A DNA stretch of 64,000 nt, from contig NC_087077.1 of the NCBI RefSeq assembly GCF_026151205.1, forward strand, positions 7,803,983-7,867,982. Reading direction: 5' to 3'. This document shows, piece by piece, positions 39,501 to 42,600 of this stretch. The notes beneath the pieces were generated by a model that saw nothing but the letters and a program-made list of their open reading frames with translations, was not told the origin of the DNA and searched no databases. Position numbers and translations under genes: made by a program. The DNA comes from Bolinopsis microptera (Eukaryota > Ctenophora > Tentaculata > Lobata > Bolinopsidae). Within the stretch, counting starts at the first letter, position 1, and the number at the start of each line of letters is the position of its first letter.

Positions 39501-42500
39501 CGCGAGGATTGCTTGCGGAGATGTGATGTATAGATAGCCTGTGATCTATGAATGCGCGGCGCAACTGTGTTTTAATGTATACGATTTAATGTATAATATT
39601 AGGTTATAAGCCCAATTTGTACGTGGCACGCGTAGTGTATTGATGTGTACACGAGTATAGTTTACCTTTGCTTACAATTTAAGTTCTTTGCTTTACAAGT
39701 TAAGTTCTTTGGCAATTGAACTGAATTTCAAGTGTTTCCTGTACTTACTACATAATTTATTAATATTATTATCATGAAGACTGAAGTGAGCTGATCGGAG
39801 CTTATACTTAAATTTATGGTAAATGTGAAATGGAAATCTAGCGTCCGCCAAAACGAAACAACGGGCGCAATTCTTGTTCTGAGTTAGAGTTTGAAAATTT
39901 AATTTAATTTGGTCAGGTATTACTGCCACAGTCAAATGTTGTTCCAATTAGCAGCTTAGTAGCTCCCAGCTGAATCTCTGAATAAAACTTGTCGCATAAG
40001 ATGGGGGTCCAATTAATTAGATCAAATTATAAATTGGAAAAAAAACTGTAAAAAATGTAGTTGATTTTAAAAACCTCAATAGACAAAAATGTCAAGAATG
40101 TAGAAAACATATAAAACTGGCCTGGAATAATAGACCATGCTAGATCTTGCTGCACCTCTAAAATATTGGTGGCCCTCTCTTTAGCTGGCCGCAGACTTCA
40201 TAATCCATGAGTCATGTTTTGGAATGAGGGAATTAATACAGTAAACTCCATTTTCAGAGCGCTACCCATCGCGAACAGAGAAGCACTGGGAATAGTGGTG
40301 AAGTACATCGTGAAGATAGAGTTATTTGTATCTATGGGAGGGTAAGTTGGTTCGTTAGTATCTGTTTCAGTGCCAATCATTCAGAGACACATTGTAACCC
40401 TTCTTCTGGTCATTGATTCTGAGTCATAATATGTAATCCTTGCTACTTTGAGGAACCGCCACGAATTGTAGCTGTAGTAATGAATATTGTATGATAGTTT
40501 CAACCTGTTTTGACAAAAAACCAATCAGAGAGTTGAAGCTGGAGTTACCGTTCACACTGTCCCATCCTATCCCTGAACATTACGAGGAAGATATGGAGCC
40601 CCCTCCTCAACCCACCGACGCCAACGCCGACAATATCAACCTAGAACTAGATGAAACTGGTGTGTTTTTATCCGATTATTTCATTGAAAGTCTTCAAAAC
40701 GCCCGTTGAAATCCTAACATTTAACCCATCAATGATTAACAATACCGCATCTCAATCTTTGCATAAGAAAATGATCGTATCTGTTTCAGGTGCATACAAC
40801 AACACCTTGTTATCGGCCCAGGCAGAGTAAGTGCTTAAACTGAAACCTAACTTTTGATTTGCCAGTCAGATTTTCAGCTTTCATTTTTTGCATGCCTTCA
40901 ATTGTTATCATCATCGGGAATTATGAACGATTTTTTGTTTGTATTGTAGATTTTACGAACTGCTTTTACACCAGTTCATTATCAAGGTCCGAGTCCCAAG
41001 TCACTCCAAGTTCAACAACAAACGAACACTCGTCTATTGAGCCTGATATAATTATCTTGAACGGAGTACCACCTCATGTTATGCCCAGTGCACCAGAACT
41101 TTCCACTTTTCAAAAACTTCACATGAAGGAATCAAGTCTATTTGAACCATCACTTTAATGATCCCAGACTATATCGTCGTGATTCCATAAATTCGTATCG
41201 AGTAAGTTAAAAAGCATCTCATCTCGAACGGTGAATATAACTAAAAGCAGGACACTAAGAAAAACATTTAAAAAAAACACTTGAAATCACTCAAGCACTA
41301 GACAGTAGACAGCCACAAGGAAATACTCTCTCTTCTTTACATTGTCACACAATGCACAAGTTGAACCCAAGGAAATATTTTCTGACCACCTCTTTAGTCA
41401 CGACGACCCCCTGATCGACCTGGAAGCAGCGCCGTTACATGACGGTGGCGCAAACAGCAGCACCGGTGAGACAGCACAACCGTCCTTGCTGTAAATCATG
41501 TGAATAACTCCCCTGATCCGCGCACTCGGTAATTGTGTGACGTATTACAGTTAGCGCTAACGTGCAAGTGCTAATCTCTAGTGCTTATCCTCCTCGCAAG
41601 TGCAATTGTTTTGCGAGTGCACCCGAGTTTGATCTTCTGAAAAAGCATGATGCTACTGCTTTCAAAAAAATACCGCTACCAACACTTAGAATAGAACGCT
41701 GAAATTATACACCGCTACGATGTAGAATATGCCTGAATAAAAGAGAGAAGCGAAGTTTATAGTGATGGTATTTAAGACGCTGCTGAAAGCACTTTTAATT
41801 AATCCAGCACAAGAATAAACATACTCGCAGTAGCACTAGCATGGTTTTGTTGTGAGTTTTTCTTCTGTGTACGTGACTTTCTCGGTTCACTATACAGCTA
41901 TACTGTAACTTCTTAGTTAGCAAATGTGGTTATCCCTTAGTTTTATAGCATGTGTCGAATGAATCTTGTCAGAATTGTAGAATTTAATGTTTTACGTTAA
42001 TAATCGTTAGATAAGTGTTTATTTGTATGCAGTCGTTTAAGGGTATTTTCGGGACAGGATTTTTCTGATACCAGATCTTGCCTTTGGAGACGACGTTAAA
42101 GAAAGATGTCGGCGTTCGAATTTAGAGACTTTTATAATGCAGGTTGCTTTCATGCCATGCAATTTTAGTAAAAGTCTTGAGTGATGCTTAATATTTTGTA
42201 AATTTCATAATTCAAGTAATTTGGATTTGAAGTAATTTAGACGTCAGTGGCAGGGTATTCAGTGAACCAAACACAATCTAGTATTGACAGAGAGCCAGTC
42301 TGCGAGAAGCATTTAAGTGGCGGAGCAAAGATGTGCAGTATATTTCCTTGACAGTCTACGAAGCAATTCGAAAACTGAATTCTTGCACAGAGTTCTTCTA
42401 CAATCTACAATCCTGCAACACTGCTGAACAATCTAAAAAATTTTGTCCCTGAAAAAAAAACCACATGCGATTAAAACAATTGGATGTTTTTTCACTTTTG

Positions 42501-42600: not shown

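What the first reader, a model, noticed from the sequence alone, without database searches (positions are those of the whole stretch)
40529..42600. Arrestin with two competing last exons, each carrying one clathrin box
Exon 13 (40790-40826) joins in frame to either 41398-41494, giving [11 protein letters not shown], or 42540-42600, giving [10 protein letters not shown]. Each would end the protein and each holds a single LIDLE/LIDFE clathrin box; splicing one to the other hits a stop at once. Mammalian beta-arrestins have one constitutive clathrin box in the linker. Here the clathrin link seems to be chosen by alternative last-exon use. Exon frames and motifs are seen; the use of both is inferred.
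Basis: partly seen in the sequence, partly recalled or inferred. Interest (0 to 1): 0.75.

Follow-up and report, generated by a model that had tools for sequence, protein, structure and literature searches.

The report
Arrestin with two alternative clathrin tails
In what is probably a comb-jelly genome, the only arrestin gene found (arrestins switch off receptors and help cells take them in) has two possible protein endings, each with one clathrin hook, while the hook at its usual place looks decayed and the usual second (AP2) hook was not found.

Summary
Observation confirmed. The 37-nt exon 40790-40826 joins in frame to 41398-41494 (tail A, LIDLE) or 42540-42600 (tail B, LIDFE); each ends the protein with one canonical clathrin box. 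Strict boxes in this frame follow 4 of 7429 AGs in the window; three of the four lead to these tails. Tail A has coding-like codon use (0 of 601 controls as high); tail B has middling codon support (119 of 1582 as high) but the best acceptor of 177. The genome's clathrin keeps the box-binding residues.

Interpretation partly supported. Both endings carry a box, so choice would swap versions of the clathrin link, not switch it on or off. The usual linker box reads NLELD. Neither tail has an AP2 motif or an arginine; a read-through ending after 40659 is weakly C-tail-like. The strongest donor of the region lies inside A (41465), so A may be a frame-switching cassette. Use of both tails is inferred; no transcripts were available. 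The genome's statistics match the ctenophore Bolinopsis microptera; one arrestin gene was found. New variant of a known kind (compare arrestin-2L).

The parts
1007..1067 (+). arrestin N-domain exon ([21 protein letters not shown])
   Evidence: tblastn with recalled human ARRB1, E 0.015; acceptor gccag, donor gtaag
2997..3091 (+). arrestin N-domain exon (finger-loop region [30 protein letters not shown])
   Evidence: tblastn E 3e-8; splice sites read
21755..21865 (+). arrestin N-domain exon (helix I region [22 protein letters not shown])
   Evidence: tblastn E 0.003; splice sites
37485..37615 (+). arrestin exon
   Evidence: frame and splice sites; PDB beta-arrestin match
37791..37926 (+). arrestin exon; polar-core Arg position reads Lys (LLIKKI against LVIRKV)
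   Evidence: role of the residue recalled
38056..38213 (+). arrestin C-domain exon
38370..38507 (+). arrestin C-domain exon with [14 protein letters not shown] (polar-core Asp pair kept)
   Evidence: role of the residues recalled
40258..40341 (+). arrestin C-domain exon
40529..40659 (+). arrestin exon: last C-domain strand plus linker; NLELD sits where mammals have LIELD
   Evidence: phmmer alignment to arrestin-2 (the ungapped tblastn alignment is one residue off this register)
40790..40826 (+).
   Evidence: donor score 8.6
41398..41494 (+). tail [32 protein letters not shown]
   Evidence: codon score above all 601 controls; acceptor 3.0, rank 30 of 177
41398..41465 (+). rival form of tail A: 68-nt cassette exon ending at donor CCG|GTGAGA
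   Evidence: donor 9.7, best of 177 GTs in 40660-44000; joined to B gives ATNY*
41736..41819 (+). two AATAAA signals (41736, 41814); a G/T-rich stretch follows the second
42540..42600 (+). tail [20 protein letters not shown]
   Evidence: acceptor 12.2, best of 177 AGs in the region, 8 of 7433 in the window score as high; codon score matched by 119 of 1582 controls
40950..41158 (+). possible third ending (tail C) if the 37-nt exon is skipped; 69 aa, no clathrin box; weakly supported
   Evidence: frame read and the ORF; codon score matched by 8 of 51 controls
40660..40709 (+). possible fourth ending (tail D): read-through of the donor at 40659, [17 protein letters not shown]-tail-like in one fixed register; no canonical clathrin box
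   Evidence: tblastn extension; codon score at background (962 of 2138 controls as high); fixed-register score matched by 1 of 2138 controls, local score by 423 of 2138

Best explanation
This is the 3' end of an animal's visual/beta-type arrestin gene, probably the only one in a ctenophore genome. After the 37-nt exon the pre-mRNA can take the acceptor of tail A or that of tail B. Shown: both joins are in frame, both end the protein, each adds one canonical clathrin box 4 to 5 residues past the junction codon, the usual linker box reads NLELD, and neither tail has the AP2 motif or any arginine (an arginine anchors the vertebrate C-tail; recalled). Inferred: both mRNAs are made; B, with its very strong acceptor, is the default, and A, with a weaker one, is the regulated form, ended at its own poly(A) site or spliced on to B in a second frame. 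Inferred mechanism: both isoforms hold clathrin through the blade 1-2 groove, whose key residues this genome's clathrin keeps. If the known C-tail latch is really absent, the box would be exposed without receptor-triggered release. Isoform choice would then tune affinity, flanking phosphorylation, the C-terminal residues and the 3'UTR rather than turn the clathrin link on or off.
For: Frames and peptides. Box rarity: strict box in frame after 4 of 7429 AGs in the window, three of the four being these tails, and 2 of 4720 in flanks; 2 of 350 filtered acceptors on + and 0 of 271 on -. Codon use of A above all 601 controls with training genes other than arrestin and above the control maximum with arrestin and Sox training (0.58 against 0.42). 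B acceptor best of 177. AATAAA at 41736 and 41814. Arrestin identity. Linker NLELD aligned to LIELD. Clathrin terminal domain keeps TLQIFNLEMKSK, with Q89 and F91, listed as clathrin-box residues in PMC5182127 (passages; alignment). One arrestin gene found in the genome. No exon with the full AP2 motif and a good acceptor in the frame of the 37-nt exon from window position 40001 to 30 kb past its end; tblastn with the human C-tail gave background hits only.
Against: No transcript or related-species sequence was available. Codon use of B is only mildly coding-like (119 of 1582 controls as high). A's acceptor is ordinary (rank 30 of 177) and a strong donor sits inside A. No AATAAA lies between 42600 and 44823 after B, only weaker hexamers. 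A and B resemble each other only over the 15-nt box (nucleotides: 19 of 2000 shuffles as high; protein: 136 of 2000), so a common origin is not shown. Read-through of the donor at 40659 gives [16 protein letters not shown], which in the ungapped alignment puts VFLSDY over IVFEDF; 1 of 2138 controls scores as high in that register, though local similarity (423 of 2138, 985 of 2000 shuffles) and codon use (962 of 2138) are at background. So a C-tail-like ending is not excluded.
Confidence: 0.58

Rival explanations
1. Tail A is a 68-nt cassette exon (41398-41465), not a last exon. Included, it supplies box A and shifts B into a frame that stops after ATNY; skipped, B is read with its own box. The result is still one box per protein.
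For: Donor CCG|GTGAGA at 41465 is the strongest of 177 GTs in 40660-44000, above the 37-nt exon's own donor (9.7 against 8.6); B's acceptor is the strongest of the region; the joined frame is.
Against: AATAAA at 41736 and 41814 after A; the 8 codons past the donor score mildly coding (264 of 5797 controls as high).
Confidence: 0.3
2. Only one tail is used; the other is a relic or very rare exon.
For: No expression data; A has a weaker acceptor and B weaker codon support.
Against: Both keep an open frame and a strict box, which acceptor-frame tails hardly ever do by chance.
Confidence: 0.25
3. A C-tail-like ending exists by read-through of the donor at 40659 (tail [17 protein letters not shown]), with a latch-like strand and only NLELD as a possible clathrin site; A and B would be the clathrin-binding forms beside it.
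For: Ungapped tblastn alignment continues into it; fixed-register score matched by 1 of 2138 controls (15 residues) and 9 of 2138 (6 residues).
Against: Codon use at background (962 of 2138 controls as high); local similarity not above controls or shuffles (423 of 2138; 985 of 2000); the register was the one the alignment chose; no AATAAA before 41736.
Confidence: 0.1
4. Skipping the 37-nt exon joins 40659 to 40950 in frame and gives a 69-aa tail (C) without a clathrin box, so that splicing would switch the clathrin link on and off.
For: Open frame of 69 codons behind an acceptor that scores 4.3, rank 14 of 177; frame seen.
Against: Codon use near background (-0.20 per codon against control mean -0.24; 8 of 51 controls as high); no Pfam match for the open frame.
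Confidence: 0.1
5. Chance: the two boxes are random matches in non-coding DNA.
For: The loose motif follows 45 of 7429 AGs in this frame.
Against: The strict motif follows 4 of 7429, three of them these tails; codon use of A and acceptor of B are independent support.
Confidence: 0.03

Closest known systems
Vertebrate beta-arrestins (arrestin-2 and arrestin-3) with a C-terminal clathrin box
   Same: Arrestin C-domain, and a clathrin box of the L[L/I][D/E/N][L/F][D/E] type (consensus from PMC2699828, passages) in the C-terminal region.
   Different: Here the linker position reads NLELD; the boxes lie past the next exon, in two exclusive tails; no IVFxxFxRxR AP2 motif and no arginine in either tail.
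Arrestin-2L (long splice form with the LLGDL-type loop)
   Same: Splicing changes a clathrin-binding element of an arrestin (passages of PMC5182127).
   Different: There a loop is added that binds a second site (arrestin box, blades 4-5) while the main box stays; here one main-type box is exchanged for another.
Visual arrestin p44 splice form
   Same: Arrestin isoform without the C-tail (passages of PMC11173308: truncated variant, enhanced rhodopsin binding).
   Different: p44 is a truncation beside a full-length form; here no secure form with the latch was found, and each tail carries a clathrin box.
Teleost ARR3
   Different: Loss by shortening in a visual arrestin; here the C-terminal region holds clathrin-box exons instead.
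C. elegans ARR-1
   Same: Non-visual arrestin with a C-terminal clathrin box (LIQLH, passages of PMC2699828).
   Different: ARR-1 also has a beta2-adaptin box (same passages); alternative tails are not mentioned in the passages I saw.

Membership tests
Visual/beta arrestin family | Arrestin_C domain | tested here: met
   Pfam PF02752 61.5 bits, cut-off 27.7
Visual/beta arrestin family | Arrestin_N domain | tested here: inconclusive
   Only the end of the N-domain was in the scanned protein (13.6 bits, cut-off 24.9); three further N-domain exons found by tblastn; first exon not found by a pattern scan of 10 kb upstream
Non-visual (beta) arrestin | Clathrin box in the C-terminal region | tested here: met
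   LIDLE in tail A, LIDFE in tail B; the usual linker position fails (NLELD)
Non-visual (beta) arrestin | AP2-binding motif IVFxxFxRxR / FxxFxxxR | tested here: not met
   Absent from tails A and B and from read-through tail D in strict form; no full motif from window 40001 to 30 kb past its end behind a good acceptor in the frame of the 37-nt exon. A distant exon could still change this
Vertebrate arrestin basal latch | Polar core: C-tail Arg, Arg169, Asp290/Asp297 (numbers and roles recalled) | tested here: not met
   No Arg in tail A or B, one terminal Arg in unsupported tail D; Arg169 position is Lys; [11 protein letters not shown] keeps both Asp
Visual/beta arrestin family | Beta-strand I phosphate-sensor lysines | not tested
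   First coding exon not located
Clathrin-box ligand | Partner site conserved in the same genome | tested here: met
   Clathrin heavy chain exon aligns to PDB clathrin with TLQIFNLEMKSK kept
Clathrin-box ligand | Binding to the clathrin terminal domain | not testable with these tools
   Needs a binding assay
Alternative last exons | Two transcripts with separate 3' ends | not testable with these tools
   AATAAA close after A, none within 2.2 kb after B; no RNA data

The most novel reading that the evidence does not exclude
In an early-branching animal lineage the only arrestin has no autoinhibitory C-tail latch and no AP2 site; its clathrin hook has left the linker and lives in two exclusive 3' exons, so that coupling of receptors to endocytosis is set by splicing instead of by receptor-triggered release of the C-tail.
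Probability: 0.3. Interest if true: 0.65.

Novelty: new variant of a known kind. Interest (0 to 1): 0.45.

Why it matters
If both tails are made, one arrestin gene gives two versions of the same clathrin link by splicing, with the box at the usual position decayed and no AP2 site or secure C-tail latch found. That bears on whether the release-the-tail switch of vertebrate arrestins is old or lineage-specific, and ctenophores are argued to be sister to other animals (title and passages of PMC10232365). Beta-arrestin-2 without its C-terminus can still drive receptor internalisation (PMC9681205 section 5), so an arrestin without an AP2 site is not implausible.

Tried and rejected
Conventional C-tail exon: tblastn with a recalled human C-tail over the window and 40 kb of flanks gave only background hits (best E 0.51 and 1.6). 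The lookalike LVFEQF at 44254 has no filtered acceptor in its open frame, and joining it from the 37-nt exon at the AG before it gives a stop as second codon (read by eye). One full-motif match, ERFTLLIEYR at 70383 in window numbering, about 29 kb downstream, is joinable only from a one-base carry and lies beyond the Sox-like gene; not pursued. A bare FxxFxxxR-type match at 89291, about 48 kb away, has an acceptor in the right frame but no acidic part; treated as chance.

Read-through ending D: found on rechecking; fixed-register similarity is unusual but codon use and local similarity are not. Kept as a rival. Because of it I lowered the novel case from 0.35 to 0.30 and the main confidence from 0.60 to 0.58.

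Tails A or B as diverged copies of the vertebrate C-tail exon: local score against the recalled human C-tail is matched by 87 of 563 controls for A and 24 of 1464 for B, and by 404 and 386 of 2000 shuffles; not shown.

Duplication of one tail exon into the other: similarity is confined to the 15-nt box, and the 100 nt before each exon score 12, no better than shuffled exons; not shown.

Tail C as a regular ending: codon use does not support it.

Larger codon training set through Pfam TCP-1 and adaptin searches of the genome: not answered, so clathrin exons, the Sox ORF and one homeobox ORF (L018) were used; five other homeobox loci (L013, L015, L016, L017, L020) gave no qualifying ORF and were left out.

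Full report
What is there. The + strand carries an arrestin gene whose identified exons run from about 1.0 kb to 42.6 kb of the window. Exons 37485-37615, 37791-37926, 38056-38213, 38370-38507, 40258-40341, 40529-40659 and 40790-40826 read in one frame. The part from 37485 to 38213 matches PDB beta-arrestins at E 8e-39, and the joined protein has Pfam Arrestin_C at 61.5 bits. The first coding exon was not found by a pattern scan of 10 kb upstream, and residues between the N-domain exons are missing from my model.

The two endings. The 37-nt exon leaves two bases of a codon (GA). Joined to 41398-41494 it gives [33 protein letters not shown], joined to 42540-42600 it gives [21 protein letters not shown]. 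Both hold one box that fits the consensus L[L/I][D/E/N][L/F][D/E] quoted in PMC2699828 (passages). Exon 40529-40659 has NLELD, which phmmer aligns with LIELD of arrestin-2: four of five positions fit the consensus, the leading leucine is lost.

Is it more than chance. Without an acceptor filter, a strict box in the frame of the 37-nt exon follows 3 of 3660 AGs on the + strand (two lead to tail A, one is tail B), 1 of 3769 on the - strand (a 9-residue tail), and 2 of 4720 in 40 kb of flanks on both strands; the loose motif follows 45 of 7429 in the window; 107 AGs lie between the exon and tail B. With the loose motif and a pyrimidine filter of 11 in 17, 2 of 350 (+) and 0 of 271 (-) qualify, the two being the tails; at 9 in 17 it is 6 of 926 and 5 of 852. 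Codon use: tail A scores above all 601 stop-free control stretches of its length, tail B is matched by 119 of 1582, and the possible tail C by 8 of 51, with training on clathrin, Sox and one homeobox gene. With arrestin exons and Sox as training, A is 0.58 and B 0.30 bits per codon against control 95th percentiles of 0.10 and 0.13 and maxima of 0.42 and 0.48. A weight matrix of 16 acceptors puts tail B first of 177 AGs in the region (8 of 7433 AGs of both strands score as high) and tail A 30th; A's score of 3.0 is inside the leave-one-out range of the training sites, -2.9 to 10.2.

Last exons or a cassette. After tail A there are AATAAA signals at 41736 and 41814, the second followed by a G/T-rich stretch; after tail B the first AATAAA is at 44823, with weaker hexamers before it. 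AATAAA occurs about once per kb here, so this is mild support for A as a last exon. Against it, the donor CCG|GTGAGA at 41465 inside A is the strongest of 177 GTs in 40660-44000. Spliced to B it gives ...SSTATNY*: still one box, ended in the B exon. So the exclusive use of one box is fixed by the frames in both models, but 'two competing last exons' is only one of the two.

What is missing. Neither tail has the AP2 motif or any arginine. A search for AP2-type motifs from window position 40001 to 30 kb past the window found no full motif with a filtered acceptor in the frame of the 37-nt exon; one bare FxxFxxxR-type match, about 48 kb away at 89291 in window numbering, has such an acceptor but no acidic part, and I treat it as chance. 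On rechecking I saw that the ungapped alignment to human ARRB1 runs on past the donor at 40659: read-through gives [16 protein letters not shown], with VFLSDY over IVFEDF. In that register 1 of 2138 controls scores as high, but local similarity (423 of 2138 controls, 985 of 2000 shuffles) and codon use (962 of 2138) are ordinary. I keep it as a rival ending (tail D); it means that a C-tail-like form is not excluded. The polar-core arginine of the N-domain side reads lysine (alignment), while both aspartates of [11 protein letters not shown] are kept. Residue roles and numbers here are recalled. By the rule that C-tail removal raises receptor binding (passages of PMC11173308), I infer that forms A and B lack the usual latch. 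An arrestin that lost these C-terminal elements is known, teleost ARR3 (PMC5501109 section 13).

The partner. The genome's clathrin heavy chain (G000:C2:15304749) keeps the stretch TLQIFNLEMKSK, with Q89 and F91, which PMC5182127 lists as clathrin-box residues (passages), and the next exon with the arrestin-box region is also well conserved. So the receiving site for LIDLE and LIDFE is present.

Whose genome. PMC11797021 Table 1 gives 265 Mb, N50 20.8 Mb, 13 chromosomes and 38.5% GC for Bolinopsis microptera, with 346 scaffolds (passages). I infer that ctenophore or a close relative; the scaffold number differs and no tool gave a name. One arrestin gene was found with two different queries.

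How it most likely works. B is probably the default end and A the regulated one (inferred from acceptor strength). Both isoforms should hold clathrin, so splicing would change the flanks of the box (A: DDP before, AAP after; B: DQL before, SDT after), the phosphorylatable residues, the very C-terminus and the 3'UTR, not the presence of the link.

Known or new. Splicing of a clathrin-binding element in an arrestin is known from arrestin-2L (passages of PMC5182127). An arrestin with exchangeable clathrin-box tails did not appear in the rows listed by the paper searches (2 of 2; 2 of 2; 12 of 80; 20 of 554; 15 of 39; 12 of 44); one search found no paper. These cover open-licence PMC papers only, and I judged by titles, abstract starts and the passages cited. 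I rate it a new variant of a known kind.

Noticed in passing
window 52769-53833 (-): Open frame of 354 aa with a Sox HMG box (Pfam HMG_box 93.8 bits; best PDB match SOX-2) and a C-terminus that reads ...[10 protein letters not shown]...PLTHL, a SoxB-like end (the SoxB comparison is recalled).
   Followed up: partly
window 30938-32074 (+): Open frame of 378 aa in an arrestin intron with a sub-threshold GIY-YIG match (18.4 bits, cut-off 22.6), like the endonuclease end of a Penelope-type retroelement (type recalled).
   Followed up: no
window 27404-28051 (-): Open frame with a weak zf-RVT match (16.3 bits, cut-off 27.5), possibly a LINE remnant.
   Followed up: no
window 15573-16328: 15-bp tandem array, about 50 copies, 97% matches, open in frames on both strands.
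   Followed up: no
window 41483-41494 and 42589-42600: Tail A ends PSLL and tail B ends ETDA; both fit a loose class I PDZ-ligand pattern (pattern recalled), which chance could give.
   Followed up: no
window 40342-40528: This intron falls where vertebrate arrestin-2 inserts the LLGDL-type loop (tblastn alignment); the joined exons encode no such loop.
   Followed up: no
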